A DNA stretch of 38,313 nt, from positions 1 to 38,313 of the forward strand of contig JAIEPD010000089.1 in NCBI GenBank assembly GCA_019749935.1, in the 5' to 3' direction. Numbering within the stretch: the first letter of the stretch is position 1; each line of letters starts with the position of its first letter. The position numbers and the translations under genes were made by a program. Positions 12,616 to 33,801 of this stretch are shown one piece after another. The notes beneath the pieces are model-generated. The model was given only the letters and a program-made list of their open reading frames with translations. It had not been told where the DNA came from and searched no databases. The DNA comes from Alphaproteobacteria bacterium (GTDB lineage: Bacteria > Pseudomonadota > Alphaproteobacteria > Paracaedibacterales > CAIULA01).

Positions 12616-13080
12616 ATGTTCTGTACCATAGCCGATTTGACCCTTTATAAAAATACCAAAAAACGTCTTATGGGGATTGATTTAGGCGATAAAACCATCG
12701 GGCTTAGTTTATCAGATCTAAGCTTAACAATCGCAACCCCTTATAAAACCCTAAGTCGCCAAGGCCAAGAGAAAAGCTTTAACGAATTAAAAGGAATTAT
12801 CGAAGAGCATAAAGTCGCCGCCCTTGTTTTCGGCTATCCCTTAAATATGAATGGATCTGAGGGTACCCAAAGTCAAAAGGTCAAAGCCTTTGCTTCCAAA
12901 TTCTATGAATTTTATCCTATTCCAATTTTTTTATGGGACGAACGTCTTTCAACAGCAGCTGTCACCCGCACCATGATTACAGCTGATCTATCTCGCAAGC
13001 GCCAAAAAGAAGTGGTAGATAAAATGGCCGCTAGCTTTATCTTGCAAGGCGTCCTTGATACGCTGAAAAGGATGGAGTAA
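12616..13080 (+). CDS. ruvX: RuvX/YqgF, pre-16S rRNA nuclease (putative Holliday-junction resolvase family)
   Basis: 154-residue RNase H-fold protein. The first strand carries MGIDLGDKTIGLSLSD with the catalytic Asp, followed by VFGYPLNMNGSEG with QSQKV, then WDERLSTAAVTR with the second acidic pair, and a final VVDKMAASFILQ helix with the third Asp. The family processes the 5' end of 16S rRNA in E. coli and was first named a putative resolvase. The start at 12616 gives a ~19-residue extension before MGIDLGD, seen in several Alphaproteobacteria; a start at the internal ATG (MGIDLGD) is possible. Confidence 0.93.
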   Translation: MFCTIADLTLYKNTKKRLMGIDLGDKTIGLSLSDLSLTIATPYKTLSRQGQEKSFNELKGIIEEHKVAALVFGYPLNMNGSEGTQSQKVKAFASKFYEFYPIPIFLWDERLSTAAVTRTMITADLSRKRQKEVVDKMAASFILQGVLDTLKRME

Positions 13081-13550: not shown

Positions 13551-13594
13551 TGGTGCCAGAGTCGGAATCGAACCAACGACACAGGGATTTTCAG
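13551..13594 (-). other. Degenerate tRNA-Phe 3' half (integration scar)
   Basis: Read on the minus strand, 44 nt run from the anticodon loop CTGAAAA (GAA anticodon) through TCCCTGTGTCGTTGG, the T-loop TTCGATT, CCGAC and TCTGGCACCA. This is the 3' half of tRNA-Phe including CCA. The acceptor arm is one base short and the 5' half is absent: the sequence beyond C32 does not pair with the anticodon stem. A tRNA half cut at the anticodon loop is the usual footprint of a tyrosine-integrase element. It is not a functional tRNA. Confidence 0.7.
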
Positions 13595-13722
13595 TATTTA
13601 GAATATAGTTTCTGTCTTTTTCTAACAAATTCTAAAATGATATATGAATCAACAAGTTACAGACAAAAATATAAGACATCAATTCTTCTTAATTCTCTAA
13701 TTTTCTACTAATTTCTGAGCCT

Positions 13723-13743
13723 AATTACACAGGAATTACACAG
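13723..13743. repeat. Tandem 10-bp direct repeat between the two tRNA remnants
   Basis: AATTACACAG occurs at 13723-13732 and 13734-13743, separated by a single G. It lies in the A/T-rich, gene-free stretch 13595-13852. Such iterated sites may bind integrase or excisionase, but that is inference. Confidence 0.4.
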
Positions 13744-13852
13744 ACTTTTTACAAAGAAATTTTTGTAGAAATAGTAGCAATCTTCTTTCTTTTTTGATTT
13801 TTTAAATAAATATTAACTACCGCCTAAAAATACTCGTGTATTATATCTAAAA

Positions 13853-13897
13853 TTTGTAATCAGTAGGTCGAGAATTCGAGTCCCTCAACCGGTACCA
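13853..13897 (+). other. Degenerate tRNA-Thr(UGU) 3' half (integration scar)
   Basis: From the anticodon loop TTTGTAA (TGT) the sequence continues TCAGTAGGTC, a T-arm with loop TTCGAGT (13875-13881), CCCTC, AACCGGT and ACCA ending at 13897. This is the 3' half of a tRNA-Thr. Two of five T-stem pairs are lost and the 5' half does not precede it; the bases before the loop cannot pair with TCAGT. As in the Phe remnant, the break is at the anticodon loop. Confidence 0.65.
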
Positions 13898-13947
13898 GGT
13901 AAATCAAGGACTCGTGGTTGACTTTGAAAAACAGAAAACTTTAAAAG

Positions 13948-14097
13948 TCACCAATAGGTGGAACTCCGATCAATTAAAATTTCCTCATCTGTATCGATGT
14001 CAAGAGTCCCTTTCTCAATTGCACCCAACCCTTTCCAATCTTCTTCTCCATTGGGCAGTATGTGAAGATGATCAAGACTAAATACATATTCTAACAT
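13948..14097 (-). CDS. Short paralogue of the DUF7336-like immunity protein
   Basis: A 49-codon frame starts MLEYVFSLDHLHILPNGEED, closely matching the first 18 or so residues of the neighbouring immunity candidate (MEYVFSLYHIHELPDGEED). After that point the two diverge, and this frame ends after 49 residues instead of 78. It lies 48 bp downstream of the intact gene in the same orientation, directly next to the tRNA-Thr remnant. It may be a truncated or recombinant immunity gene, or a pseudogene left at the edge of the array. Confidence 0.5.
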   Translation of the reverse strand: MLEYVFSLDHLHILPNGEEDWKGLGAIEKGTLDIDTDEEILIDRSSTYW

Positions 14098-14394: not shown

Positions 14395-15708
14395 TCATTT
14401 TCCTGGATTTTCACAGCCTCTATCGCAAAATTTTTTGAGTTTATTATAATCTGAAGCAGGACCTTTATCATAGTTTCCTTTTCCATAGATAGAATCACAG
14501 AGCCTTTCTGCGTATTTTGTACCTTTTTCGTTAACATATGGCATTTGTCCTTTAGCCCAGCTGGGAATATTTTTTGCGCTTTCTTTTCCACTAAAACCCT
14601 CTTTTCGTATTTTGAATTCAGGTATTTTTCCATCTTTATGAAGCACACTTGTATCAGGTCCTTCGTAAGCATCAAAGCCTTCTACATGTCCTCTGGTTAG
14701 ATCTTCAGGCACTGCATCATATCCTGGTGTTCTTGGTAAATGATCAGCTGCAGGCGTTGCATGAACAGTTGGTTTTGCTTCTTCAGTATCAACGCCCGTA
14801 TCTTCCCATTCAGCATTCTCAGGCGCTGCATCCATTCTACGCTTAAGAATATCTTCTGTTTGCTTCTTGGCAAGAAAACCTCCTGCCATGGTTGTCGCTA
14901 ACAGTCCGCCAACAGCTTTAAAAACCTCTTTTGTTAAAGTTTGCGCACAGTTATTGATAACGGCGGTTGTTGCCGTTTCAATACCCACACCCACGTCATG
15001 ACCGGTAAATAGATTAGAAACCGCACCGCTAAATCGTGCCAAATCAACGGTACTTTTTATCTCCGCCTGGACCAAAGGTTGCAAAGATTCTTCTGTCAAG
15101 GGCCTGCCCTCTGCCTTTGCTTTAGCAACAACTCTTTGTGCGATTGTTTCCGGATCTTCCTTAATAAAATTGGCAACCGTGGTTGCGACCATGGAGGAAA
15201 GACCGCCTGAGATGGCTCCTTCTTCGGCATTTTCAGATAACATGGCCCCAGTACCTGCCCCAGAAATGCCATGTAGGGCTGCCTTAGTAAAGGGATCAAA
15301 CCCGCCAGCACCAATATGTTTTGCAACCGATGCCTGCAGAGTACTGGCAACAGCAACTCTCGCTGCACTTAACGCGGCTTCATCAATTTTCTTACCGGTT
15401 GCTACGTCAACTGTAAACCCTGCTGCTGCTCTTCCAAGGCCAGTTTCTGTTAGCCCAGCCGTCGCGACAGAAGTTGCAAGCGATTTAAACGTATCCGTTG
15501 TGGTTAGATGTTTTGCTGCTTTACCAAAGTTACCGTCGTTATTAGCCAAGGAAAGGGCTGCTTGGGAACAAAGGGATGCAAAGGCAGCGTTTGTTATGGC
15601 AGAGGATAAAACCCCTGTCGTTCCCATCAAACTGGCCCCAGCACTCTGTGTGGCGATGGTGACAGCAAGGGCAATGACAGCGCCAAAGGCTGCAGTGGGG
15701 CCACGCAC
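14395..15708 (-). CDS. Orphan CdiA C-terminal cassette 1 (DUF637 region + toxin domain)
   Basis: 437 codons from a GTG at 15708; a TAA stands just upstream in frame (15721-15723). Residues 1-230 reproduce the DUF637/pre-toxin region of the full CdiA (RGPTAAFGAVIALAVTIATQ onward). After VINNCAQTLTKEVFKAVGG the linker is unlike the other copies. The last ~75 residues are a toxin-like domain with GFSGKESAKNIPSWAKGQ, then YAERLCDSIYGKGNYDKGP and YNKLKKFCDRG. This resembles a domain recurrent at the tips of CdiA/RHS proteins (possibly the Ntox33 type; low confidence). No signal peptide or stalk is present, so it is probably silent unless recombined onto CdiA or translated internally. Confidence 0.75.
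   Translation of the reverse strand: MRGPTAAFGAVIALAVTIATQSAGASLMGTTGVLSSAITNAAFASLCSQAALSLANNDGNFGKAAKHLTTTDTFKSLATSVATAGLTETGLGRAAAGFTVDVATGKKIDEAALSAARVAVASTLQASVAKHIGAGGFDPFTKAALHGISGAGTGAMLSENAEEGAISGGLSSMVATTVANFIKEDPETIAQRVVAKAKAEGRPLTEESLQPLVQAEIKSTVDLARFSGAVSNLFTGHDVGVGIETATTAVINNCAQTLTKEVFKAVGGLLATTMAGGFLAKKQTEDILKRRMDAAPENAEWEDTGVDTEEAKPTVHATPAADHLPRTPGYDAVPEDLTRGHVEGFDAYEGPDTSVLHKDGKIPEFKIRKEGFSGKESAKNIPSWAKGQMPYVNEKGTKYAERLCDSIYGKGNYDKGPASDYNKLKKFCDRGCENPGK
15171..15357 (-). repeat. DUF637 187-bp identical block, copy in orphan cassette 1
   Basis: This 187-bp stretch is identical base for base to 18583-18769 and 21761-21947. It encodes the DUF637 segment from about STLQASVAKHIGAGGF to MVATTVA. 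It is flanked by regions that differ at many synonymous positions, so identity beyond coding constraint implies recent recombination. Confidence 0.9.
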
Positions 15709-15823
15709 GCTATGGAGAATTTAGCAGAGGCTATATGCCTTTAGCTTTGGTCAATTTAATCAGATATTATAAAACTCAGGCAATAGCTCCAACTCCCAAC
15801 TTACGTGGTAAGATTTATTGTGG

Positions 15824-16465
15824 TTATAGTTTTTTTCTAAATTGCTCAAGAATTCTTTCCTCACCATCTTTTTCTAATTCAAAAACAAAGGGGGTGCCAC
15901 CAGTTTGAACAACAATCTCTATTTTATCAGCGCTTGCTATTTTTGCAAAGGTGGATATTGGCATCTCAAAAACGTATGCTTGTGCGCCAGACGTTAATGA
16001 ATACCGACTAGGGGATAATCCCCATATATCTTCAGCCTGGAGAGGGGATGCCATCTTATATAAAGATAGGTCAGTATGTTTGAACCTGTTAGGGTTTTCC
16101 TTTGCTATTTTATTTACCAATACATCAATTGGGTTAAATACATAACCAGGAACTATTTTTTCCTCACTAATACCATTTTTAGTTGTTTTAATCATTATTT
16201 GAGGTTTTTCATAAGGAGCTTTAAATCCACCAAGATATCCATTATCAAACCTGACATGCATATAAGCTGCCAACCGATTGTCAGGTATTTTTCTAAAAGA
16301 AATACTTGTTGCACTTATAGACGAAGATGTCCGTGCAATTGGATAATTGCTAAGTTCAATATATTTTTGATTACTTGAGCTAGAATCTCTTTCAATAATT
16401 TGAACAGAATTGCAGCCGCTCAATAATATTGTGATTAATATTATGCTAAAATATGTAATTCGCAT
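15824..16465 (-). CDS. Lipoprotein of unknown function (second of a pair)
   Basis: 213 residues. A short signal peptide ends in the lipobox LLSGC (Cys 18), so it should be lipidated and held in an envelope membrane. The body is beta-rich with an Arg/Ser-rich early segment, an EEKIVPGYVF stretch and a C-terminal FVFELEKDGEERILEQFRKKL. The start lies 2 bp after the stop of the preceding lipoprotein gene, so translation is coupled. Both proteins end with a similar helix (E..LLEFIRKK / E.RILEQFRKK), suggesting distant paralogy. They lie between the SUKH immunity gene and orphan cassette 1; a protective or cargo role is possible but unproven. Confidence 0.65.
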   Translation of the reverse strand: MRITYFSIILITILLSGCNSVQIIERDSSSSNQKYIELSNYPIARTSSSISATSISFRKIPDNRLAAYMHVRFDNGYLGGFKAPYEKPQIMIKTTKNGISEEKIVPGYVFNPIDVLVNKIAKENPNRFKHTDLSLYKMASPLQAEDIWGLSPSRYSLTSGAQAYVFEMPISTFAKIASADKIEIVVQTGGTPFVFELEKDGEERILEQFRKKL

Positions 16466-16467
16466 GA

Positions 16468-17025
16468 TTATTTCTTTCTTATAAATTCTAAAAGTGATTC
16501 TCTCTGTTCTACTGAGAACTCATCTTTAATAGGTTCATATCCGGTGGGAATGGAGAAATGTAATTTTTGGGCTATTACTATTTTCTTAAGATCATCAAGT
16601 TTTAAACCAAAATCACCTTTGTAGATTTGGATTATGGAACCACTGGATTCGGTAAATGAATCATAATCTTGGTTTGTAACAATAAAGTTTAAAATAACTG
16701 GTGGTTGGCCAGCATTTTCAACTGTAAATGTTATATTGTCTCCTTTTTTGATACCATGATTTTTTCCTGCAAACAGAGAACCCAATAAAGATCTTATGTA
16801 CTTAAGCTCAACAGATCCCCATACCTCGTCTTTGTTTGATTTTTTAAAATTTAAAGTTGCCAAAGAAACATCTGTTCCTCGCGTTGATAAACCAAGAGCT
16901 AAATGCTTATATGCAATATTAGTGAAAGGATCATACGATTCAGATTGTTGTACGGTTTTTAAACTACAACCTGTTAAAAAGATTAATAAAAATGCACATG
17001 ATATTTTTATCATATATTTTTCCAT
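16468..17025 (-). CDS. Lipoprotein of unknown function (first of a pair)
   Basis: 185 residues with a signal peptide and lipobox FLTGC (Cys ~20). The mature part contains YKHLALGLSTRGTDVSLATL, GKNHGIKKGDNITFTVENAG with PVILNF, and a final ESLLEFIRKK helix. The ATG at 17013 (MIKISCAF) has a GGAAA just upstream and may be preferred to 17025. It has no recognised family. It begins 120 bp after the SUKH immunity gene, in the same direction, and is followed 2 bp later by its probable paralogue. Confidence 0.65.
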   Translation of the reverse strand: MEKYMIKISCAFLLIFLTGCSLKTVQQSESYDPFTNIAYKHLALGLSTRGTDVSLATLNFKKSNKDEVWGSVELKYIRSLLGSLFAGKNHGIKKGDNITFTVENAGQPPVILNFIVTNQDYDSFTESSGSIIQIYKGDFGLKLDDLKKIVIAQKLHFSIPTGYEPIKDEFSVEQRESLLEFIRKK

Positions 17026-17145
17026 TTACTATACAATTAATAAAGCAGCTCCAAACTTGCATATTCAAATTTGAAATGCAACTGTTTTGAAAATTATTTT
17101 TCAGTTAGAAGGTGTTTCTTTATAATTTCAAAGAACAAAAAAAGG

Positions 17146-17589
17146 TTATTGATACAAAGTATCTGTTAAAAGTTTATGAAGGAATTCCTCAAAATTGTCT
17201 GCTAATTTAATCTGTTCAAAACCAGCATCATGATCCGAAAGCCAGACCGAACCATCAGGTTTGCATCCTATAGGGTTGCCATCAAAATCATCCGAGATTA
17301 CATACCAATCCTCAATATCAGGCCAAGATTGGCTGCGATAAAAATTAGTAACGTTAATAACTGTTGATAATTTCTCGTCCATATCTTTTTGCTTTTCCAT
17401 ACCATATAAAAGTTTTGAGCCAATGCAAGCACCTCCATATTTTTTCAGAAACGTTTTATATGATTCCTGAAAGTTAACACCTAAACTGTCTTCTGCCTTA
17501 CCAATACTTTCAGTTATTGCAGGTTGAGCCATATCTTGGGGATAAGTTTGAAAATACTCTTCTAATTTAGTCCAAATGCTATTACTCAT
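17146..17589 (-). CDS. SUKH (SMI1/KNR4)-family immunity protein
   Basis: 147 residues. SUKH features seen: an N-terminal helix pair, AITESIGKAEDSLGVNFQES then YKTFLKKYGGA (the E..LG..LP..Y..FL..G.GG pattern), a central IEDWYVISDDFDGNPIGCKP, the strand GSVWLSDHDAGF, and a C-terminal NFEEFLHKLL helix. SUKH proteins are the most widespread immunity proteins for nuclease-type polymorphic toxins. The ATG lies within the last codons of the HNH-type orphan cassette (8-bp overlap), so toxin and immunity are translationally coupled and almost certainly cognate. Confidence 0.85.
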   Translation of the reverse strand: MSNSIWTKLEEYFQTYPQDMAQPAITESIGKAEDSLGVNFQESYKTFLKKYGGACIGSKLLYGMEKQKDMDEKLSTVINVTNFYRSQSWPDIEDWYVISDDFDGNPIGCKPDGSVWLSDHDAGFEQIKLADNFEEFLHKLLTDTLYQ

Positions 17590-19009
17590 TAAATTCTCCC
17601 CTTCTACTTAATTCTGCTTTTGCTCGTTCCTTATGAAAAGATTCTCTTAACTTATTCCAATTAGATCTTTGTTCTGGTTTTAATCCCATTCCTTTTATAT
17701 TACCATAAGGGTGCTGCAATGGATTGCTAACATTATGGTTAGAAGCAGGCATTTCAACAATGAATGCTCCGGAATCTCTATGATATTGTTGCCTATGATG
17801 ATGTCCTCGTAATTGTTCTCCTGATATGCTTCTTGGTGCACGCCCCGAACGATAAATATCCCATAGAGTTGAGCTTTCAACATGCTCCAAATCTCTTACC
17901 GCCCTAAATTCCACGCCATCGAACTTTACCTTGCCAGGGCCTAAATATTCAAGTTTAGATCCAGCTGGAATTGCCTCTCCCCGAATGGCTTTGCCTTTTG
18001 TAATCTGGGCAGATTGTGCAGAAGGAACTTTATTCCCCCTCATCTTCTCCGCCGCAGACCTCAATTCTCTCGCTATGTATTTTGGAGCAGTAATATACCC
18101 TTTAGCTAAGACCTTATCAGCTTTGGCTTGACCTTTGCTTCTGATCTTGGGAGTTTTGGTTCCTTTATCGTCTGCCATAACGCCACCCATGCCCATCAAT
18201 ACATGAGCACCTGCCTCTACAACCTCTGGGTGTTCGTCGATATAATCCGCCGTTTTGTCCATAGCATCAGCAGCCGCAACTTTGCCGGCATCAACGGCTT
18301 CTTGCAGCGCTTCCTTCAGGGCAGAGCTTTCAAACACCTGTCGTTCCATGGTCGCTGCACAGTTATTGATAACGGCTGTTGTTGCCGTTTCAATACCAAC
18401 ATTCACATCATACCCTGCGAATAACGTGGCAACTGCAGCACTTAACCGTGATATATCAATTGTTGCCCTTAGTTCAGCTTGAACGTAGGGTTGTAAGGAT
18501 GCTTTATCGAGGGAGCTTCCGTCTGCTTTGGCCTTTGCAACCGCTCTCTCTCCAATGATATTGGGATCTTCCTTAATAAAGTTGGCAACCGTGGTTGCGA
18601 CCATGGAGGAAAGACCGCCTGAGATGGCTCCTTCTTCGGCATTTTCAGATAACATGGCCCCAGTACCTGCCCCAGAAATGCCATGTAGGGCTGCCTTAGT
18701 AAAGGGATCAAACCCGCCAGCACCAATATGTTTTGCAACCGATGCCTGCAGAGTACTGGCAACAGCAACTCTTGCTGCACTTAACGCTGCCTCATCGATT
18801 TTCTTACCGGTTGCTACGTCCACTGTAAACCCTGCTACTACCCTTCCAAGGCCAGTTTCTGATAACCCCGCCGTTGCGACGGCAATTCCTAAGGATTTAA
18901 ACGCATCTGTTGTGGTTAGATGTTTTGCTGCTTTTCCGAAGTTACCGTCGTTATTAACCAGGGCAAGGGCTGCCTGCGAACAAAGGGATGAAAACGCTGC
19001 ATTGGCCAT
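17582..19009 (-). CDS. Orphan CdiA C-terminal cassette 2 with HNH/EndoVII-type nuclease toxin
   Basis: 475 codons from ATG 19009; the frame is open to a TGA at 19055-19057. It aligns with the CdiA DUF637 region from MANAAFSSLCSQAAL through SKGQAKADKVLAKG, but the hydrophobic segment following HSV is replaced by a short unrelated stretch. The last ~150 residues are the toxin. The nuclease-like core is ~390-460, with LRGHHHRQQYHRD (~399), GAFIVEMPASNHNVSNPLQH and then PYGNIKGMGL. These His/Asn clusters fit an HNH/Endonuclease VII-type fold with an LHH-like signature. Cognate immunity is the overlapping SUKH gene. No export signal is present, so it behaves as a stored tip module. Confidence 0.8.
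   Translation of the reverse strand: MANAAFSSLCSQAALALVNNDGNFGKAAKHLTTTDAFKSLGIAVATAGLSETGLGRVVAGFTVDVATGKKIDEAALSAARVAVASTLQASVAKHIGAGGFDPFTKAALHGISGAGTGAMLSENAEEGAISGGLSSMVATTVANFIKEDPNIIGERAVAKAKADGSSLDKASLQPYVQAELRATIDISRLSAAVATLFAGYDVNVGIETATTAVINNCAATMERQVFESSALKEALQEAVDAGKVAAADAMDKTADYIDEHPEVVEAGAHVLMGMGGVMADDKGTKTPKIRSKGQAKADKVLAKGYITAPKYIARELRSAAEKMRGNKVPSAQSAQITKGKAIRGEAIPAGSKLEYLGPGKVKFDGVEFRAVRDLEHVESSTLWDIYRSGRAPRSISGEQLRGHHHRQQYHRDSGAFIVEMPASNHNVSNPLQHPYGNIKGMGLKPEQRSNWNKLRESFHKERAKAELSRRGEFNE
18583..18769 (-). repeat. DUF637 187-bp identical block, copy in orphan cassette 2
   Basis: Identical to 15171-15357 and 21761-21947. With the CdiA copy the near-identity extends on the low-coordinate side to about 18397 (21573 in cdiA), so cassette 2 and cdiA share the longest recombination tract. 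Confidence 0.9.
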
Positions 19010-19050
19010 GGCAGAGGATAGAGCACTTGCAGTGTTGAACGCGCTATGTT

Positions 19051-19299
19051 TTAATCACATGCTCGCAAGGCTTTATTAAGTTCCGCATGTAGTTGTCGAG
19101 CATGCTTTCTTGTTTCTTTTGAAAGATAATCCAATTTTAAAATATTTTTGATATTCCACTTTAAATCCATAAAAATTTCCGTGCCTATAATGCTTCCAGA
19201 CATAGCATCTAGCAATCCATCTGCATATTCTTCAGCCCCATCTTGAGTTAAAAGTGCTATAAGTTTTTTTGTTTCTTTATAATAATCATAATTTGACAT
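19051..19299 (-). CDS. Candidate immunity protein for orphan cassette 3
   Basis: 82 residues, helical and acidic: YYKETKKLIALLTQDGAEEY, LLDAMSGSIIGTEIFMDLKW, then NIKNILK and SKETRKHARQLHAELNKAL. I recognise the G-T-E-I...L.W.L..I pattern as common in small proteins beside toxins, but do not assign a family. It starts 2 bp after the cassette 3 stop with AGGAAAA as ribosome site. Its TAA is immediately followed by the CATAGC junction of cassette 2, so the cassette unit is toxin plus immunity. Confidence 0.65.
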   Translation of the reverse strand: MSNYDYYKETKKLIALLTQDGAEEYADGLLDAMSGSIIGTEIFMDLKWNIKNILKLDYLSKETRKHARQLHAELNKALRACD

Positions 19300-19301
19300 G
19301 T

Positions 19302-20078
19302 TTATTTTCCTAAATGATGAAAACTTTTCATTTGCACTCCATTCACAGGAACCACCACTTCAATGGCTCCACCTCTGTTTGATTTTACACCAGGAGCTGG
19401 GCGTGTGACAAATGGTGTTCCTGGCTTAAGTTGCGCTGTCTCGACAAAGTTTAAATCCTTAAAATTCTCAGCTGGGATACCATATTTTTTGGCGTAACCT
19501 GGATTTAATGGATTTTCTAGAGACCAATATTGAGCTTCAGCTGCATGGCTTTTACCAGTCGTACCTCCTCTATAAAGTGTTGCGCCTTCTTTAACTTTCT
19601 TACGCGCCTCTAAAGCTTCAGGAATCCTGTCTTGAGATGCTAATCCCCTTGGAGTTTTAATTCTCTTATATCTAACTTGAGGGATTGAATCGCTCTTCAG
19701 TTTACCATCCCGTATCTTATCCGCTGCTGTTCTAAGGCCTTTAACAAGGGGTTTTGCAGCTGAGGCCATTCCTTTAGCTAGAATCTTATCAGCTTTTGCT
19801 TGACCTTTGCTTCTAATCTTGGGGGCTTTGGTGCCTCTATCTCCAGCCATAACGCCACCAACAGCCATAAGCATGTGTGTGCCTGTTTCAACAACATCAG
19901 GGTGTTCGTCTATAAACTTAGCGGCATCATCCATCGCATCTGCAGTAACTGTCTTACCAGCATCAAAAGCATCCTGCAGCGCTTCCTTCAGGGCGGAACT
20001 TTCAAACACTTGCCGTTCCATGGTGGCTGCGCAGTTGTTGATAACAGCTGTTGTTGCCGTTTCAATACCAACATTCAC
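19302..20078 (-). CDS. Orphan CdiA C-terminal cassette 3, possible ADP-ribosyltransferase-like toxin
   Basis: The open frame extends back to 20309 without an ATG, GTG or TTG before the GTG at 20078, so this start is nominal and the cassette looks startless. Upstream codons from ~20300 still match CdiA (ATTVANFIKEDPNIIGER). The shared part ends after SKGQAKADKILAKG with KPLVKGLRTAADKIRDGK. The toxin part carries ATLYRGGTTGKSHAAEAQYW (~166), SLENPLNPGYAKKYGIP, FVTRPAPGV and GGAIEVVVPV (~235). The spaced R, S and E fit an ART-type R-S-E arrangement, but this is my inference. Immunity candidate follows after 2 bp. Confidence 0.7.
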   Translation of the reverse strand: MNVGIETATTAVINNCAATMERQVFESSALKEALQDAFDAGKTVTADAMDDAAKFIDEHPDVVETGTHMLMAVGGVMAGDRGTKAPKIRSKGQAKADKILAKGMASAAKPLVKGLRTAADKIRDGKLKSDSIPQVRYKRIKTPRGLASQDRIPEALEARKKVKEGATLYRGGTTGKSHAAEAQYWSLENPLNPGYAKKYGIPAENFKDLNFVETAQLKPGTPFVTRPAPGVKSNRGGAIEVVVPVNGVQMKSFHHLGK

Positions 20079-20305
20079 ATCATACCCTGCGAATAACGTG
20101 GCAACGGCGGCACTTAACCGTGATATATCAATTGTTGCTCTTAGTTCAGCTTGAACATAGGGTTGTAAGGATGCTTTATCGAGGGAGCTTCCGTCTGCTT
20201 TGGCCTTTGCAACCGCTCTCTCTCCAATGATATTGGGATCTTCTTTGATAAAATTGGCAACCGTAGTGGCCGCAACCGATGCTATGGCACCTGAGGTAGC
20301 ACTAG

Positions 20306-20770
20306 TTATTTAGGAGCTTTAGAGTTTTCTAGCTCTTTTCTTAATTGCGTAATTAACTCCTTATGATGAGGTGATTCTTTTTCCATTAGATCAAAGAGCC
20401 TTAATAAAAATAGTTTGTCTGCACGATGAATATGTTTACGAAAAATTTCATAGTCTTCTTTTGAATTAAATAAAATAGAAACTATTTCCTCGCAAAGGCT
20501 TGGGCAATGTTCAAAAAACTCTCCGATATAAGGCAAAAAACTCCTTATACCTTCTTCATCTAGAAAATAGAGAATAATATCAGGTAAACTCTCATTTATA
20601 ATGTCGTATTCATAATCCTCTTTACAATGTTTTAAAATCTCTTTTAAAGAGGTTGAATCCTTTTTCAACAGTATTTCATTTAGTGTATCTAAATATTTTT
20701 CCACATCACTTTCATCTGCTACTTTGCTGTATTTCTCTAAATTCTTATAAAGCTCTGGTAATGTAGTCAT
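20306..20770 (-). CDS. Candidate immunity protein for the full-length CdiA toxin
   Basis: 154 residues, mostly alpha-helical and acidic, with repeats of helix pairs (LYKNLEKYSKVADESDVEKY, LKEILKHCKEDYEYD, IRSFLPYIGEFFEHC). No catalytic motif or signal peptide is seen. It begins 13 bp after the cdiA stop with GAGGGAA as ribosome site and reads the same way, the position expected of a cdiI gene. It vaguely resembles helical immunity families such as Imm30; I do not assert that. Its stop codon coincides with the truncated beginning of orphan cassette 3. Confidence 0.65.
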   Translation of the reverse strand: MTTLPELYKNLEKYSKVADESDVEKYLDTLNEILLKKDSTSLKEILKHCKEDYEYDIINESLPDIILYFLDEEGIRSFLPYIGEFFEHCPSLCEEIVSILFNSKEDYEIFRKHIHRADKLFLLRLFDLMEKESPHHKELITQLRKELENSKAPK

Positions 20771-20783
20771 AATTCCCTCTTAA

Positions 20784-23700
20784 TCATTTCTTAAATAGGT
20801 TAGGATAAAGATCTTTGTTTTGTTCTACTACTTTTTGCAAACCCTTTCGAATTTCAGGAGTGTATGCACCATCATGCTTATAGACATGTCTTGCTCTGAG
20901 AGTTGCTTGCGCTAATGCACTTCTTGGAGTTTTAGATAAATCCTGCCTCTGTAGCTGTTTATGTATCTCTCTGTGACGCCCGCCTGTGCCTGGAATAGGG
21001 TGTTCTACCATCATGGAAACTCCTTTATCTCTTTGAACGCCAAGATAATTCATATACTGGTCATTGGGGATATGGTGACGAGCTAAATTATCATTTCTTG
21101 TTTTATATTTCTTTAACTCTTCATATGTCCCAACTTTTCCTTCTCCAGGCAATAATGGTCTTTGTTCTGTCTTACCTTTTCTAGAAGATACTGATGCAGA
21201 AGCAGCTTTATTTCCCCTCATCTTCTGCGCTGCCGCCCTTAATCCCTTTGCCAGAGGTTTTGCAGCAGAAGCATACCCTTTAGCTAAGACTCTATCAGCT
21301 TTTGCTTGACCTTTGCTTCTAATCTTGGGGGCTTTGGTGCCTCTATCTCCAGCCATAACGCCACCCATGCCCATCAATACATGAGCGCCTGCCTCTATAA
21401 CCTCTGGGTGTTCTTCAATATAATCCGCCGTTTTGTCCATAGCATCAGCAGCCGCAACTTTGCCGGCATCAACGGCCTCTTGCAGCGCTTCCTTCAGGGC
21501 AGAGGTTTCAAAAACCTGTCGTTCCATGGTCGCTGCACAGTTGTTGATAACGGCTGTTGTTGCCGTTTCAATACCAACATTCACATCATACCCTGCGAAT
21601 AACGTGGCAACTGCAGCACTTAACCGTGATATATCAATTGTTGCCCTTAGTTCAGCTTGAACGTAGGGTTGTAAGGATGCTTTATCGAGGGAGCTTCCGT
21701 CTGCTTTGGCCTTTGCAACCGCTCTCTCTCCAATGATATTGGGATCTTCCTTAATAAAGTTGGCAACCGTGGTTGCGACCATGGAGGAAAGACCGCCTGA
21801 GATGGCTCCTTCTTCGGCATTTTCAGATAACATGGCCCCAGTACCTGCCCCAGAAATGCCATGTAGGGCTGCCTTAGTAAAGGGATCAAACCCGCCAGCA
21901 CCAATATGTTTTGCAACCGATGCCTGCAGAGTACTGGCAACAGCAACCCTTGCTGCACTTAACGCTGCCTCATCGATTCTCTTACCGGTTGCTACGTCAA
22001 CAGCAAACCCGGCAGCTGCCCTCCCAAGGCCAGTTTCTGATAACCCAGCTGTCGCCACTGAGGTTGCAAGCGATTTAAACGCATCCGTTGTGGTTAGGTA
22101 CTTTGCGGCTTTTCCAAAATCACCACCATTATTAGCCAAGGAAAGGGCAGCCTGCGAACAAAGGGATGAAAATGCTGCATTGGCCATAGCTGAGGAGAGC
22201 ACACCTGTTGTTCCTAAAAGACTTGCCCCAGCACTCTGTGTAGCGATGGTGACAGCAAGGGCAATGACCGCACCAAAGGCTGCGGTGGGACCCCGCACAC
22301 TATGGGATTCAACGTGGTGCAGTTCATCTAAAAGGATATGGTTAATGGCAGCTGCCCCATGCAACTGAATCCGATTAATCCACTCGAGGGTCTGTCCCCG
22401 AACCGATTCAACACTCACGGTCCCAGCATGAATCTCTATTACATCACTGAACTTTGAGGCTGGATGGGTGCGGTGAAACTCTTGAAGAATGCTTCTGCTT
22501 TGAAATAAAAGACCTGATCCTTGGGATGTGCGCACATAAGACGCATAATCTGTTCCTGAATGAATCGCAACTTCACCCAGAATCGATGCTAAAATCACCT
22601 TTGGCGCCACACACGTGATATGGGTTAGATCAATATTCCCCATCGAGGCCATAGATACAACATCGCTTATATAAGTTGGGCCTTTGGATTTTGCTTCTGA
22701 ATAAAGGGTTTCGGTTTTGCTTGAAGAACTGCCCCCAAGAAAACCTCTACTGCCTTTGTTTGAAACATTCTGGTATTCATAACTATCGTGAACCTCGTGC
22801 CCACGGACACCTTGTTTGCCAACCACTGTTACCTTGGGTGCCTCTACTCTATGGGCATAAATATCTTGAACCCCTTCTGCTGTTGATAAAAACTCACCAC
22901 TTGAGGTATGGGTGGATACATGTTGATGAACACGTCTTTCACGGGTATAGCCACCGCCGCCAGGATGATAATGGAAATTACCACTTGCTAAGGCTAAGGC
23001 TTCATCCAACGTGTTCCGTCCAGCATTCAACCAAGTCTTAACACCAGAGCTGGTTCTTGCCGCTTTAAGTAGGTTATCACGCTCAGAATCAATAGTAACC
23101 ACATGACCCGCTTCAACAGAGGCTTCATCGATTTCATCGGCATAATTATATGCGTTTCCTTCACGACGCGCTAAAGATTGAAGGCGAGTGTCCTGGGCTG
23201 ATATTAGAGTGGCATCATGGCCTGCTTTAATTTGCGTTGCTAGCAGATTAAGATCGCTTTGCGTTGTGGTCACATTTACGTCATGTTGGTTTTTAAGACG
23301 AGCGCGCACCATTTCGATGTGGCCAAACGTTAAGCTGGTATCAATGGCTTTCAAAGTCGCAGAACGCCCCGCATCAGGCTCAATTTCTGATTCAGGAAAA
23401 TACACTTCCAAAACCATTAAGGGAATATTTTGATAAGTCATTTCTCTAAAGAACATCACAACTTCTGGAATCTTGCGGATGGATTCAGGGCTTTCTAACA
23501 TTCCAAGGCCTCCGTAATGCCTGCCAGAATCTAACAAGAAATCAATCATTTCCTGACTCGTAAGGCCTTTATGATAAACACGTCCTAAATGCTTTAGCAT
23601 CAAGTCATATACAGCCGAATCCGATAAATTAGGATGAGCATACAAAAGGGCATTGCTTTTAAAACCAAGGTTTTTTTGACCAACAACAGGTGCCAGACTA

Positions 23701-26700
23701 GAATCGCCATAAGATCTGCCTTTCCTTGAAACCGTATATCCAATAGTCCCGTCAGGCTTTTGGACAATAAGGCCATGTTCTGTAACCTTTCCTTGAATTG
23801 CATAAGCCGTAGAATGAACGCCAGCGGTTGGCCTATCACTGGTCATAGAGGCAATAAATATGACCGCTAATGTATCGCCGCGAAGGATAATGGTTTGCGC
23901 CGAAAGATAGGATGATTGCCGTGATTTCCTTGGCGACATCTGGATGTGTTTTCCGGACACCATTTGAGGCGTATCTATACAGTAAAGACCGTCGTCCCGG
24001 AAGCTACATCCTACACGATAGGCTGCATCATCACTCCTTAGAATCTCCAAAGGACGGCCTTCTGCATGACTGTTAGAAGAGCCATCAAAAATCCCGCCAA
24101 TGCCTTTAATGATGCCAGCATAATTGTAAATTTCGTGAACATTAAAATGAATTTGCCCTAGAGACGCTATCTCAGCACGGTCAGATTGTGGATATTCTTG
24201 CCAAAAATGCCAAACTCCATCAGCCTCATCTTTACTCGCGCGATAGGGAGGAAGTTGCGTGTGAACATAACGATGACCATTAATCAATAAATGGCTCTGC
24301 GTCTCAATTTTAGAGGATAGATTTTGAATGTCAGCTGTTGGGGATTTTGACTCTAGCTCTATCCAACTCTCAGCAGAGATATGAGTGTGATTTAAAGAGA
24401 CGCCATCTCGTCCCCAGATATATAATGCATCATTCGAAGAGACAAAGGTCCCGTTTCGCCGACTATAGAGCGATGTATAATCCCTGCCATACGCATCATG
24501 ATTCTGGCATAAAGGTGGGGCTTTACAAAATTCCTCAATCGACAGCCAAGCATGTGTTTTCCACTCTTGGATACCCTCCCCAACGCTAACTCTTCCTTTT
24601 TGTGCCCAAAGCCGCGTCAATCCTTCCCCCGCAATGTGCGCATAAGGGAGATTTAAATCACCATTACGCATAACAATGATCAGATCATTGTCTTGCTTGG
24701 TCGTTATCTTGGGATCAGGCAGAGTTTCAATCGTTCCATAGACAGAGCTACTTTCGCCAAGTTCAAACAACTCTTCCACCCGAAGAACAAGGCTGTTCGC
24801 TTGTAATTTATAGCGGGGGTTTTTATATTTTTTAACTTCCAATCTCAGTTTACCAGCATGGGTGATATCGCTCTCTTGGTAAAACTTATCGCCATAAATC
24901 CAAAGAGCTCCCGCGTGTTGCCACCTATCACCAAATCGATGAAGATTATAGGCTATATCCATAAAGGAAGCCAATTCTAAAACCAAATCACCTTTTGTCT
25001 TTAAAGTGCCAAAGCTTGATTGGTTGGTTAATTTTCTAGTCGAACCAGGAGTTTTAATTCCTCCATTTTTAAAATTGGCGATCCTAATTTTAGGGCCGCT
25101 TAAAGGATTTTTTGGCGTCATACTAGGCTTTAAAGCAATGAAATGTAGATTTCCAGAAGACTCGATAACCCCGGAATTTTTTAAAACGTCAGTTGTTAAC
25201 TCCATCCCATCTAAAGTAACAAGTGTCCCTAAGTTTTTAACCCCTTCAAAACGATGTTCTCCTCTTCCCAAAGAAAAAACGCCTTGCTTTGCAATAGAAA
25301 GGGATTTAACTTTAAGGTCTCCCACTAAAATTTTTACGATTCCATAGATATTTAGTTCATCAAGCGGCAAATAATCTGAGTATAAATTTGCCTGTATTAC
25401 ACCGCTTAGATTTTGATGACGACCATATTTTTCTTTGCCAGCTCCTCTGCTATGACTCCAAAAACTAAGACTATCCAAGCTTAGGTATCCATCCGCATTA
25501 TCGAAGATACTCACCTCAAGCCTTCCATTCTTCATTTCAAAACGGGAATGATTGATAAAGAGTTCGGGTTTAAGCTCACCTGACCCAATTTGGATGTAGG
25601 ATGTTTGTTTTTGTGCCTCTATTGATTTTTCTGACTCTTTGGGCAGATTTTCGATCCACTTGATACCTGGCCCTATAGAATCAATTTCTATTTGGCCCCC
25701 TTTATTCGTTATTCTTTCTGTCCCTTCAGTTTGAAGGCGAGTCACTTTAAATAAAGAGGTATTTGTAAAATCTCCATAGTCAGAAAGATTAAGGATTGTT
25801 GTCCCACGCGTCACACCAAACTGACTTTCATTCACAATATGGTACGCTGATAAATAAGCCCCCATCTCACTCTCAATCGTTCCTCTTAAGGTCAAGGTGT
25901 CGTAGAAAGAGGGCAAAACCAAACGAAGGGGCCCTTTTGTTTTCAGCTCCATGCCTGAAGAACTATAAAAGCCAGCTCCTTCATAGCTAAACCCCTGCTC
26001 ACTTGTGAAGTTACCAAGAAGATTTAGATACTTTCCGTTTATGACCGTTTTTCCATTAACGTTAATGGTCCCTCTATCATTAAAAACGCCACCCTCGCTG
26101 ATTAAATCTTCTTTTACAAAAATCGTTCCATAATTATCAAAAGTTTCGGATCGCGTTTGTAAATGCTGCAATTCCAAAGCACCTTTGTTGAGCCAATAAA
26201 GAAAATCCCATTCATAAGGTGTATCGACTCTTGGCTTATAGGGTACAGTTGTTTTGATAGTTCCTCTGTTCTCAAACATCCCTTTTCTAAATGTTGAGCT
26301 TTGATCTTTTGCTATCTCAAAATGAGGGATTGGTGCTTCAAATTGATCTGTTCTTTCCAAGTACCCTAAATTCAAAAGATATAAAGCTCTAAGATTGTTA
26401 TGGGTCCACCGGATTAGGCAGCGATTAATAATTTGATTAGCATAAGCCTGATTGTCGAACAGCATCATCTGTCCAGAGTTATCAATCACCTCTCCTTTCC
26501 AATCAAAAAGCTTTAAGGCTTTAAAGGATCCTTCATTTAAAAGTTTCACGCCTCTTAAGGTTGCTGAGTTTTCTAAAGTAATCTTTCCTTTGTTATGAAT
26601 CTGATCAATCCGTCCTTTGATAACACCAGCTAAAGTGATTTCTCCTTCTGTTTCAAAATGATCCATGTCAAAGTCAGTTAAATCCGTAACTTGAAGAGAA

Positions 26701-28922
26701 CCTTCTTTTTGATTTATGAAACCGCTTCCTTGCTGCTGCCAATGTGTTAGGGTCATGGTGCCATTATTTCTAAAAGACTGATGGCGGTTGCAAAAATGAG
26801 GAGTGATGAGCTTTCCTTCATTAATTCTAACCGATTCCGGCAATAAACTTTTTTCAAAGGTTAACGTTTTAACAACTATTGCCGCTCTTTTATTACCTTT
26901 AGATAAGTCTCCATTGCGCCAAGTTTTTACATGAGAACCAATCCTGACTTCCATTTTGTCTTGGATCCATTCACTGAAATTTTCAAACTCATTATTGTTA
27001 ACGAAAACTTTAAGACCAATAATTTCACCACCAACAACAAACTTACTTGCGCCTGATACAGTTAAAGAATCAGCTATTGCCAATAAACCTTGCTCATGAG
27101 AAAACTCACCAATTAAATCTAAAACGAGAGAATCAGCAGACCACCGCCCCCTGTTAATCCCTTTCAGACGAACCTTCCCCTCTCCAATCACAGATCCAGT
27201 TGTGTCTGTAAAGAATTCAGCAATTGTTAAATTTTCGAATCCCTTATCAGCTTGAAAAACGCCACTATTTCGAAGTTTTCTAAGAACGCCCTTCATACCT
27301 GCAGCGCTCTTAAAAATGCCCTTATTAATAAGCTCTCCTTGATAGTCTTTAAACCACACACCACCTTGAAGACTTATGCCTTCATTTACCCCAGAAACCC
27401 CACCATTTTCGATGTCAGCATGCCCTTCTATAATGGTTAATCCTTTAGCAGTAACGCTTCCTGTGTTTTTATTAGTAAACTTTTCTCTTAGAGCTAAAGT
27501 CAGAGCTCCGTTTGCTTCGATAAGGTTATGGTTTATAACGGATCTGTTTCCAAGAGTCATGAGTTCTGTACTCGATATTACACCAATGTTCTCAAAGCTT
27601 CCTTCTCCTAAAGTTTCAAGGATTCTCTCACCAAAGAAAATTGCTTCTAGAGCATTGATAAAATGCGCCCCTAAAGTAAGCTTGTGTTTACCCTTAGCTC
27701 CAAATTTTTTCTGATTTAAAAAAGGTCCTCTGATGATTGTTTTTGCTCTTCCTTCTGAGAAAATGTCGCCTTCATTCAAACCACCATTTAAATCAAGGCT
27801 TAATGAGCTCTTTCCGTTGATTACTCCTTTATTTTTTGTGATGCCTAAGACTTTTACACGCTCGATCAAAGCCGCGATCGTGTTTGTATTTAGAAAGTTT
27901 CCTTGAAAAATTAGGGTTTGTTTCCTATCCGAGATCATTGTCCCGGTATTTTCAAAATCCTTTAAGCCAATCACTTCTGTTAAACGAGAACTATGTATTA
28001 TTCCTGTATTTGTATAATCTTGGCTTGCCCATAAACGAATAACATCCCCTTTAATTGTTTGAGCGTTCTGAAAAAATTGAGACCTTATTGAATAGGAACT
28101 CCCATTTATGGAGCTTAGATTGCAAAATAAACGAGCATTTATAAGCCTAGAACCTGAAGCAAAATTTACATCACCATAGTTAATAAAATCGTGGCCTTTT
28201 AAATCCATAAGGCCATCTTTGGTAACAAACAGAGTCCCTCGATTTTCTGCCTGACCTTGGTGAAGACAAAAGTCTTTTATACTAAGTGAAGCTTCTTTTA
28301 GATTGATAACCCTTCCCGTCACGCCTTTGGAGCTTTCTGCCCAAACATCTAGACGATTTATGGAGCTATGACCGTGATGAAGAACGTTTGCTGCTTTTAC
28401 CAAAAGGTGATCTAAAGCCAGATTCTCACCTAAGACAACAGAACCATAAGGGTTATAAAGCCTTAAGACAGAAGATCTAGAAGCTTTATCTCCTTTTCCT
28501 GAAACGAGCAAGTTTCCAGACGCATGAAAGAAAAAAGAATATCCAAGCTGTTCCCAAGCAAGACCATCTGTTTGGATTTTTAAACCTGGATAAAGGGATT
28601 GCAGCGATAAAGAGGTATCAATGAGTTTTTGCGTTTCTTCTAAAGATCTTACTAAAGGTATGAAAGGCAAAGATGTTCTTGATTTTACAGAGAAATCCTC
28701 ATTTTTATCATCAATCTGAATTTCAAAAGCAACGCCTCTCTCTTTTTCGATTATTTCTTCAGCAGAAAAAACTGAACCAAAAAACGCACTCGGAGAGTCA
28801 GGACGTATCACCTCCATATCGGCAGCAAAAATCACGCTCGGCCAAAGAGTTTGAAAATAAAAACAAACCAAAACCAGCCAGGAAACAAAACGTTTGAACT
28901 TTGAGGCACAATTGGATGTCAT
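20784..28922 (-). CDS. CdiA-like filamentous haemagglutinin with nuclease-type C-terminal toxin
   Basis: 2712 residues from ATG 28922 (a TTG two codons earlier is less likely). A signal peptide covers ~8-35 (FKRFVSWLVLVCFYFQTLWP, cleavage near FAA-D). Residues ~150-1750 are repetitive beta-helix stalk (N-x-G, F-x-N-x-G-x-I repeats). A haemagglutinin-repeat region with AGHDATLISAQ is near 1890. DUF637 begins at HSVRGPTAAFGAV (~2207) and the shared pre-toxin linker KIRSKGQAKADRVLAKG lies near 2540. The tip (~2575-2712) has LARHHIPNDQYMNYLG (~2612) and MVEHPIPGTGGRHREIH (~2636), suggesting an HNH-type metal nuclease. No VENN motif is seen. A TPS domain with a canonical NPNG motif is not evident; LYNPYGSVVLGENL (~157) may be its equivalent. 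Immunity gene follows. Confidence 0.85.
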   Translation of the reverse strand: MTSNCASKFKRFVSWLVLVCFYFQTLWPSVIFAADMEVIRPDSPSAFFGSVFSAEEIIEKERGVAFEIQIDDKNEDFSVKSRTSLPFIPLVRSLEETQKLIDTSLSLQSLYPGLKIQTDGLAWEQLGYSFFFHASGNLLVSGKGDKASRSSVLRLYNPYGSVVLGENLALDHLLVKAANVLHHGHSSINRLDVWAESSKGVTGRVINLKEASLSIKDFCLHQGQAENRGTLFVTKDGLMDLKGHDFINYGDVNFASGSRLINARLFCNLSSINGSSYSIRSQFFQNAQTIKGDVIRLWASQDYTNTGIIHSSRLTEVIGLKDFENTGTMISDRKQTLIFQGNFLNTNTIAALIERVKVLGITKNKGVINGKSSLSLDLNGGLNEGDIFSEGRAKTIIRGPFLNQKKFGAKGKHKLTLGAHFINALEAIFFGERILETLGEGSFENIGVISSTELMTLGNRSVINHNLIEANGALTLALREKFTNKNTGSVTAKGLTIIEGHADIENGGVSGVNEGISLQGGVWFKDYQGELINKGIFKSAAGMKGVLRKLRNSGVFQADKGFENLTIAEFFTDTTGSVIGEGKVRLKGINRGRWSADSLVLDLIGEFSHEQGLLAIADSLTVSGASKFVVGGEIIGLKVFVNNNEFENFSEWIQDKMEVRIGSHVKTWRNGDLSKGNKRAAIVVKTLTFEKSLLPESVRINEGKLITPHFCNRHQSFRNNGTMTLTHWQQQGSGFINQKEGSLQVTDLTDFDMDHFETEGEITLAGVIKGRIDQIHNKGKITLENSATLRGVKLLNEGSFKALKLFDWKGEVIDNSGQMMLFDNQAYANQIINRCLIRWTHNNLRALYLLNLGYLERTDQFEAPIPHFEIAKDQSSTFRKGMFENRGTIKTTVPYKPRVDTPYEWDFLYWLNKGALELQHLQTRSETFDNYGTIFVKEDLISEGGVFNDRGTINVNGKTVINGKYLNLLGNFTSEQGFSYEGAGFYSSSGMELKTKGPLRLVLPSFYDTLTLRGTIESEMGAYLSAYHIVNESQFGVTRGTTILNLSDYGDFTNTSLFKVTRLQTEGTERITNKGGQIEIDSIGPGIKWIENLPKESEKSIEAQKQTSYIQIGSGELKPELFINHSRFEMKNGRLEVSIFDNADGYLSLDSLSFWSHSRGAGKEKYGRHQNLSGVIQANLYSDYLPLDELNIYGIVKILVGDLKVKSLSIAKQGVFSLGRGEHRFEGVKNLGTLVTLDGMELTTDVLKNSGVIESSGNLHFIALKPSMTPKNPLSGPKIRIANFKNGGIKTPGSTRKLTNQSSFGTLKTKGDLVLELASFMDIAYNLHRFGDRWQHAGALWIYGDKFYQESDITHAGKLRLEVKKYKNPRYKLQANSLVLRVEELFELGESSSVYGTIETLPDPKITTKQDNDLIIVMRNGDLNLPYAHIAGEGLTRLWAQKGRVSVGEGIQEWKTHAWLSIEEFCKAPPLCQNHDAYGRDYTSLYSRRNGTFVSSNDALYIWGRDGVSLNHTHISAESWIELESKSPTADIQNLSSKIETQSHLLINGHRYVHTQLPPYRASKDEADGVWHFWQEYPQSDRAEIASLGQIHFNVHEIYNYAGIIKGIGGIFDGSSNSHAEGRPLEILRSDDAAYRVGCSFRDDGLYCIDTPQMVSGKHIQMSPRKSRQSSYLSAQTIILRGDTLAVIFIASMTSDRPTAGVHSTAYAIQGKVTEHGLIVQKPDGTIGYTVSRKGRSYGDSSLAPVVGQKNLGFKSNALLYAHPNLSDSAVYDLMLKHLGRVYHKGLTSQEMIDFLLDSGRHYGGLGMLESPESIRKIPEVVMFFREMTYQNIPLMVLEVYFPESEIEPDAGRSATLKAIDTSLTFGHIEMVRARLKNQHDVNVTTTQSDLNLLATQIKAGHDATLISAQDTRLQSLARREGNAYNYADEIDEASVEAGHVVTIDSERDNLLKAARTSSGVKTWLNAGRNTLDEALALASGNFHYHPGGGGYTRERRVHQHVSTHTSSGEFLSTAEGVQDIYAHRVEAPKVTVVGKQGVRGHEVHDSYEYQNVSNKGSRGFLGGSSSSKTETLYSEAKSKGPTYISDVVSMASMGNIDLTHITCVAPKVILASILGEVAIHSGTDYASYVRTSQGSGLLFQSRSILQEFHRTHPASKFSDVIEIHAGTVSVESVRGQTLEWINRIQLHGAAAINHILLDELHHVESHSVRGPTAAFGAVIALAVTIATQSAGASLLGTTGVLSSAMANAAFSSLCSQAALSLANNGGDFGKAAKYLTTTDAFKSLATSVATAGLSETGLGRAAAGFAVDVATGKRIDEAALSAARVAVASTLQASVAKHIGAGGFDPFTKAALHGISGAGTGAMLSENAEEGAISGGLSSMVATTVANFIKEDPNIIGERAVAKAKADGSSLDKASLQPYVQAELRATIDISRLSAAVATLFAGYDVNVGIETATTAVINNCAATMERQVFETSALKEALQEAVDAGKVAAADAMDKTADYIEEHPEVIEAGAHVLMGMGGVMAGDRGTKAPKIRSKGQAKADRVLAKGYASAAKPLAKGLRAAAQKMRGNKAASASVSSRKGKTEQRPLLPGEGKVGTYEELKKYKTRNDNLARHHIPNDQYMNYLGVQRDKGVSMMVEHPIPGTGGRHREIHKQLQRQDLSKTPRSALAQATLRARHVYKHDGAYTPEIRKGLQKVVEQNKDLYPNLFKK
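21761..21947 (-). repeat. DUF637 187-bp identical block, copy in cdiA
   Basis: Identical to the blocks in orphan cassettes 1 and 2. It lies upstream (in coding direction) of the variable toxin tip, where a crossover would replace the tip and its immunity gene together. Confidence 0.9.
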
Positions 28923-29431
28923 GTGCAATCATGTCTTGGTAAATTTAATAAATGAATAAAAACTAAACTTAAACAGACAATTAAACTAGCTATCTAATTA
29001 TATAGGTTATTTATTTTTTATTTATACAATAATAAAATTTAAATAAATGTTTTAATAAACAAGCATTGGGCTCATAAAACTAAATTACTCAGAAATTGAT
29101 CTTTTATATAAAATATCAATATGGTTCAGTTCATGAAGTAGATAAACCTACCTGATTTTTTTTGAGCTAATCCTTAACGTCAGGGATTCAGTTTGTCATT
29201 AAATTACCTTTCCATAGGTTATAATAGCTTGTCAGTGTTTATAAATAATTTAAAGTTTTAAAATATCCCTTTTCTAGGGGAATCATTTGGAATTGACTTT
29301 ATTTATCCCATCAATTAACTAAAGATATATTTTTGAAAATCCATTCTTAAGAGATTTTTTAAATCATTTGAAACTATCTAAAATTTTTTAGATCTTTTAT
29401 AAAAAATAAAAACTTACAAGGGAAATTTTTT
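28923..29431. promoter_or_regulatory. Gene-free A/T-rich region with candidate cdiA -10
   Basis: 509 bp without a supported gene. On the minus strand a TATAAT at 29002-28997 lies about 75 bp before the cdiA start and could be its -10; no good -35 is placed correctly. A small imperfect inverted repeat AATCC...GGATT surrounds 29170-29190. No cdiB-like frame is present. Confidence 0.35.
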
Positions 29432-33754: not shown

Positions 33755-33801
33755 AAGACACCCTTCTTTATGGGGCAATTTTTTAAAAAGAGGATATATA
33801 A

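What the first reader, a model, noticed from the sequence alone, without database searches (positions are those of the whole stretch)
13551..13897. Two opposed tRNA 3' halves (Phe and Thr) as nested integration scars
Both remnants stop exactly in the anticodon loop, keep the T-loop and CCA, and are degenerate. They point outward from a 258-bp gene-free segment that also carries a tandem AATTACACAG repeat. In each, the tRNA 3' side faces the flank and the broken 5' side faces the segment, as if its two ends came from elements using different tRNA targets. It marks the border between core genes and the toxin array.
Basis: partly seen in the sequence, partly recalled or inferred. Interest (0 to 1): 0.6.

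Follow-up and report, generated by a model that had tools for sequence, protein, structure and literature searches.

The report
Fused scars of two tRNA-targeting elements
A 347-base stretch between core genes and a toxin-gene array holds two broken tRNA-gene ends, left by mobile elements that insert into tRNA genes; the kind is well known, but the back-to-back joining of two such scars (seen twice in this genome) is unusual.

Summary
A tRNA-Phe 3' half (13551-13595, -) and a tRNA-Thr(UGU) 3' half (13852-13897, +) diverge from a 256-bp segment. Both begin at nucleotide 31/32, the edge of the anticodon loop. They are attachment-site scars of elements with tyrosine integrases. Scars starting at the same base occur elsewhere in this genome and in five relatives. 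The Phe half sits at its native locus: ruvX and tRNA-Phe are convergent neighbours in four relatives. The Thr half belongs with the His-Thr locus on another contig, which is occupied and also followed by toxin genes. Its right flank keeps one unit of an arm site, so it looks like a tandem-array junction like one found complete in the same genus. The window is therefore a fusion of two integrase-dependent sites. Best inference: an inversion or recombination between a Phe-integrated and a Thr-integrated element, with later loss of both integrases; this step is not shown. A second opposed pair (Lys-like/Thr) exists in the same genome. Known kind, unusual fused arrangement.

The parts
13551..13595 (-). 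tRNA-Phe(GAA) 3' half, nt 31-76 with one G deleted; distal attachment scar (attR) at the native tRNA-Phe locus
   Evidence: 98% to intact tRNA-Phe of G001, G002, G003, G006, G007; ruvX|tRNA-Phe convergent neighbours in G001, G002, G003, G005
13596..13851 (.). 256-bp gene-free segment between the two crossover points; read as fused ends of two elements
   Evidence: no ORF or integrase relic; no homologous stretch elsewhere in the genome or in 27 relatives
13723..13743 (.). AATTACACAG x2, period 11; arm-type integrase-site-like direct repeat, first unit 129 bp from the Thr crossover and 148 bp from the Phe crossover counted in the other direction
   Evidence: unique in the genome; comparable 11-bp repeats lie at 137-141 bp in three other scars (C84, G003 C12, G004 C30)
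13852..13897 (+). tRNA-Thr(UGU) 3' half, nt 31-76, two substitutions; attachment scar / tandem-array junction
   Evidence: E 5e-33 to own intact tRNA-Thr on C18; identical start point in scars of G003, G004, G006, G007
13898..13959 (+). flank homologous to the 62 bp downstream of the intact tRNA-Thr on C18
13945..13956 (+). AAGTCACCAATA at +48 past CCA: first unit of the arm-type repeat that is complete (AAGTCACCAATAAGTCACCA) beside C18 tRNA-Thr; second unit lost here
12616..13080 (+). ruvX, native neighbour of tRNA-Phe
   Evidence: PF03652, E 4e-42; synteny
14395..28928 (-). polymorphic-toxin array: 2714-aa large secreted protein with DUF637 domain plus orphan C-terminal modules and SUKH-family immunity-like gene; flank on the 3' side of the Thr half
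   Evidence: related degenerate genes lie beyond intact tRNA-Thr on C18 in the same orientation

Best explanation
Both halves are displaced tRNA 3' fragments made when elements carrying an Arm-DNA-bind_3-type tyrosine integrase recombined within the anticodon loop of a host tRNA gene. The element supplies a new 3' half at its other end, so the intact gene is rebuilt there and the old 3' half is left as a scar. One element entered the native tRNA-Phe beside ruvX. Another series entered tRNA-Thr of the His-Thr locus and formed a tandem array carrying toxin genes. The window joins the distal end of the Phe element to a Thr-half junction of the Thr array. The most likely cause is an inversion or recombination between the two oppositely oriented islands, possibly through their similar integrase regions, followed by deletion of both integrases. 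The predicted counterpart elsewhere is a pair of intact, converging tRNA-Phe and tRNA-Thr genes bracketing the rest of the composite island. Shown: identity and start point of the halves, native Phe locus, occupied Thr locus, sister scars with integrases. Inferred: that the repeats are integrase arm sites, tandem origin of the Thr half, the fusion event (about 0.4 on its own), loss of the integrases.
For: Halves start at nt 31/32, as in scars of G003 C12, G004 C30, G006 C238, G007 C63 (Thr), G007 C80 (Phe) and own C84 (Arg). An integrase with PF13356+PF00589 lies on the broken side in G003 C12, G004 C30 and G007 C80, and its truncated PF13356 N-terminus in own C84. Own genome also has a Ser pair: intact tRNA-Ser with integrase on C92, 3' fragment on C64. 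Native ruvX|tRNA-Phe order in four relatives. All five intact tRNA-Thr genes in genomes with Thr scars, own C18 included, carry an 11-bp-period repeat at +46..+48 past CCA, while the scar-free G001 does not. In G004 the same repeat motif stands at both ends of its Thr island. Same-genus G002 C160 shows a complete tandem junction: integrase, repeat, Lys 3' half, AGTCACC repeat at +48. Toxin genes lie beyond both the window Thr half and C18 tRNA-Thr, same orientation. Precedents: tRNA fragments marking islands, anticodon-centred sites (PMC4383910); integrase-driven inversions between tRNA genes (PMC5495485); contact-inhibition genes in an ICE at tRNA-Phe and tandem ICEs there (PMC11278526).
Against: No integrase or conjugation gene remains in the window. 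The intact tRNA-Phe and the other island ends are not in the assembly or lie on separate contigs, so the inversion cannot be seen. The AATTACACAG repeat matches neither the AGTCACC motif at C18 nor any other known motif closely, and cannot be assigned to one of the two crossovers. Individual repeat p-values are weak for several sister scars (up to 0.41); the strength is in their common period and position.
Confidence: 0.66

Rival explanations
1. Nested cargo: the Thr half and toxin array were carried inside the element that integrated into tRNA-Phe, so the segment is simply that element's distal end, and the Thr half is an old junction inside its cargo.
For: Needs no inversion; the repeat can be read as the Phe element's arm site (148 bp from the Phe crossover); P. 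mirabilis has contact-inhibition genes in an ICE at tRNA-Phe (PMC11278526).
Against: The Thr half keeps host-type tRNA-Thr flank shared with C18 (62 bp) and toxin genes in the C18 order, which points to the host's own Thr locus. No integrative or conjugative genes are seen to the right in the window.
Confidence: 0.22
2. A single integrase produced the junction directly by joining two att sites in inverted orientation, helped by the symmetrical anticodon stem.
For: The C93 pair (Lys-like/Thr) is joined exactly at one shared anticodon loop with palindromic stem CTGAT/ATCAG; integrase-mediated inversions between tRNA genes are demonstrated in Thermococcus (PMC5495485).
Against: In the window the two loops are 256 bp apart and share no overlap sequence, so a direct core-to-core join cannot make it.
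Confidence: 0.06
3. Assembly or amplification chimera joining two unrelated contigs.
For: The genome is a 96-contig draft; several contigs end within tRNA genes or repeated sequence ends, consistent with repeat-limited assembly.
Against: The join is not at a shared repeat: the 256-bp segment is unique in the genome and both flanks have decayed (indel, substitutions), as expected of an old real junction.
Confidence: 0.05
4. tRNA halves were copied back from RNA (for example halves cut by an anticodon nuclease toxin and reverse-transcribed).
For: Both ends lie in the anticodon loop and a toxin array is adjacent.
Against: The Phe half is in its native gene position, and the Thr half continues 62 bp into genomic flank beyond CCA.
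Confidence: 0.01

Closest known systems
Islander-type genomic islands in tRNA genes with anticodon-centred attachment sites (PMC4383910)
   Same: 3' tRNA fragment as displaced end mark; crossover at the anticodon loop; tyrosine integrase; tandem arrays
   Different: Two fragments of different tRNAs diverge from 256 bp; no integrase between; whole islands cannot be delimited here
ICEPm1/2/3 of Proteus mirabilis at tRNA-Phe, with contact-inhibition genes and tandem ICEs (PMC11278526)
   Same: tRNA-Phe target, direct repeats within the tRNA gene, contact-inhibition toxin cargo, tandem integration into an attR
   Different: No conjugation genes seen here; opposed Phe and Thr ends
Integrase-mediated chromosomal inversions between tRNA genes in Thermococcus (PMC5495485)
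   Same: Breakpoints at oppositely oriented tRNA genes; rearrangement attributed to a mobile element's integrase
   Different: There the exchange is within sequence shared by the two genes; here the join lies in element-end DNA between two half genes
Polymorphic toxin islands of the Paracaedibacter-like endosymbiont of Bodo saltans (PMC8163844)
   Same: Related bacteria; large toxin gene with orphan C-terminal modules
   Different: No tRNA scars described in the passages read

Membership tests
Genomic island integrated in a tRNA gene (Islander principle) | Displaced fragment of the tRNA 3' side at one end | tested here: met
   Phe nt 31-76 and Thr nt 31-76
Genomic island integrated in a tRNA gene (Islander principle) | Regenerated intact tRNA at the other end | tested here: inconclusive
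   Thr: intact on C18 with arm-like repeat, separate contig. Phe: intact gene not found in the draft
Genomic island integrated in a tRNA gene (Islander principle) | Integrase gene within the island | tested here: not met
   None in the window; own-genome integrases lie on C25, C72, C90, C91, C92; present in sister scars. Hence called a scar/remnant, not an island
Anticodon-loop attachment site | Crossover at the 5' edge of the anticodon loop | tested here: met
   Same start in at least seven scars of the family
Tyrosine-integrase att site with arm-type repeats | Tandem 10-11-bp arm sites flanking the core, same motif on both arms | tested here: inconclusive
   Repeat present left of the Thr half and decayed single unit at +48 right of it, but different motifs
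Tandem island array | Each member with its own tRNA fragment and integrase | tested here: inconclusive
   Complete example in same-genus G002 C160; in the window the integrase is missing
Contact-dependent-inhibition-type toxin locus (adjacent array) | Large secreted protein with DUF637-type module and orphan C-terminal toxin/immunity cassettes | tested here: met
   DUF637 in three proteins, SUKH immunity-like gene; partner transporter not looked for

The most novel reading that the evidence does not exclude
Opposed tRNA 3' halves are a recurrent product in this lineage: integrases that cut in the symmetrical anticodon stem-loop repeatedly misjoin att sites of different tRNA genes head to head, shuffling the chromosome and moving toxin arrays between tRNA loci (two cases in one genome: Phe/Thr on C86, Lys-like/Thr on C93).
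Probability: 0.12. Interest if true: 0.55.

Novelty: new member of a known kind. Interest (0 to 1): 0.33.

Why it matters
It shows how toxin arrays in Paracaedibacteraceae may be gained and relocated: through tandem islands at tRNA-Thr, tRNA-Phe and other tRNA genes. It also gives a concrete, checkable signature (opposed tRNA 3' halves; arm repeats at +46..+48 past CCA) for finding fused or inverted islands in draft genomes where the integrase is gone.

Tried and rejected
A mobile repeat carrying both halves: rejected, the segment is unique. Retro-copied tRNA halves: rejected by the native Phe position and the genomic flank of the Thr half. The 62-bp Thr flank as purely native host flank: doubtful, since C18, G006 and G002 show an arm-like repeat at the same position and same-genus G001 has a different flank. 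Assigning the AATTACACAG repeat to the Phe or Thr crossover by orientation or motif: not decidable. A first order-wide pattern search for opposed halves was too strict and missed the known C93 case; repeated with a looser pattern. Plasmid and phage searches gave only generic tRNA matches. The concatenated-protein search for genes flanking tRNA-Phe and tRNA-Thr in G001 did not locate the other island ends. Rfam gave nothing significant. An early guess that a TTGTAAAG motif marks the element end was dropped when the C93 copy proved to lie in a repeated, probably insertion-sequence, end.

Full report
Observation. The Phe half (13551-13595, -) and the Thr half (13852-13897, +) are real and begin at nucleotide 31/32 of their tRNAs. 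The Phe half equals the genus tRNA-Phe except for one deleted G. The Thr half has two substitutions against the genome's own tRNA-Thr(UGU), and the match runs 62 bp past CCA (88% over 108 bp). ARAGORN sees no tRNA in the window. The segment between them, 13596-13851, is unique in the genome.

Where the halves belong. In G001, G002, G003 and G005 tRNA-Phe lies beyond ruvX in convergent orientation (RuvX confirmed by PF03652); in G002 about 2.8 kb of other genes lie between the two. The window has ruvX, then a glyoxalase-family gene, then the Phe half, so the Phe half is the native gene's 3' part. The intact tRNA-Phe was not found in this 96-contig, 96.1%-complete assembly; it must exist elsewhere, since the Phe half cannot function (inference). 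The intact tRNA-Thr is on contig C18 next to tRNA-His, as in G001, and is followed by an IS1595-type transposase and degenerate toxin genes related to the window array, in the same orientation.

What makes such halves. The same genome and its relatives hold sister scars that start at the same base. Thr: G003 C12, G004 C30, G006 C238, G007 C63. Phe: G007 C80. Arg: own C84. Lys: G002 C160. In G003 C12, G004 C30, G007 C80 and G002 C160 an integrase with an Arm-DNA-bind_3 domain lies a few hundred bases away on the broken side, and in own C84 its truncated N-terminus does. Own genome also has the classical pair for Ser: intact tRNA-Ser with integrase on C92 and a 3' fragment on C64. G007 C63 has a MobA/MobL relaxase gene on the broken side.

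Arm sites. Comparable repeats with period 11 lie 137-141 bp from the crossover in C84, G003 C12 and G004 C30. On the other side, all five intact tRNA-Thr genes from genomes that also hold Thr scars carry a period-11 repeat at +46 to +48 past CCA: own C18 and G006 AAGTCACC-type, G003 and G004 AGGTAGC-type, G007 GGGTATAC-type. The tRNA-Thr of G001, in which no Thr scar was found, lacks it. G004 has the same motif at both ends of its island. Single p-values are modest; the recurring position and period carry the weight. That these are integrase arm sites is inference from this and from general knowledge of tyrosine integrases.

The Thr half as a tandem junction. The window's Thr flank has AAGTCACCAATA at +48 (13945-13956), identical to the first unit at C18; the second unit is lost. 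In G002 C160 a complete version is seen: integrase, GGTAGCA repeat, Lys 3' half, AGTCACC repeat at +48, next element. So the Thr half most likely marks the join of two successive Thr islands, and the toxin array belongs to the older one. This is inference.

How the two came together. The Phe half's element side and the Thr half's element side face each other with 256 bp left. If the islands lay in opposite orientation, an inversion between them gives exactly this junction here and converging intact tRNA genes at the other junction. Nested cargo within a Phe element is the main rival. Neither can be decided from the draft. No integrase remains in the window.

A second opposed pair. At C93:85363-85430 a Thr 3' half and a Lys(CTT)-like 3' half share one anticodon loop back to back. 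Of 42 genomes in the order, only this one shows a true pair by the pattern used; the other hits do not look like tRNA. This recurrence is the least ordinary aspect.

Known context. Islander documents thousands of such tRNA fragments, about half with anticodon-centred sites (PMC4383910). Proteus mirabilis has contact-inhibition genes in an ICE at tRNA-Phe and tandem ICEs there (PMC11278526). Integrase-driven inversions between tRNA genes are shown in Thermococcus (PMC5495485). Polymorphic toxin islands occur in a Paracaedibacter-like endosymbiont (PMC8163844). One related genome in the matching set is named Candidatus Paracaedibacteraceae; the window's organism is of that family by kinship.

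Verdict. A real and well-explained feature of a known kind, in an unusual fused form. The scar reading is strong (about 0.95); the inversion reading is a best guess (about 0.4).

Noticed in passing
L053:10364-10440 (own contig C93:85363-85440): Thr 3' half back to back with a Lys(CTT)-like 3' half sharing one anticodon loop; the Lys-like side has a GGGTTAC repeat at +52 past CCA and is then cut by a sequence repeated at several contig ends (probably an insertion sequence).
   Followed up: partly
L158 (own C84:19077-19600): tRNA-Arg(CCU) 3' half with the truncated N-terminus of an Arm-DNA-bind_3 integrase beside it, interrupted by an IS3-type element.
   Followed up: partly
L156 717-740 and L152 7994-9535 (own C64 and C92): Classical island ends at tRNA-Ser(UGA): intact gene with integrase on C92, 3' fragment on C64.
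   Followed up: no
L186 (G002 C160): Complete tandem island junction at a tRNA-Lys(CUU) 3' half: integrase, arm repeat, 3' half, second arm repeat.
   Followed up: partly
L113 8469-9909 (G003 C48): Integrase 85% identical to the G007 Phe-scar integrase lies on the other side of ruvX from tRNA-Phe, with no tRNA recognised next to it.
   Followed up: no
L136 7070-7145 (G003 C18): G003 has a second intact tRNA-Phe with upstream sequence nearly identical to the one beside ruvX.
   Followed up: no
window 34448-37087: 879-aa protein with a signal-like N-terminus and no Pfam match, preceded by small genes that look paralogous (33380-34242).
   Followed up: no
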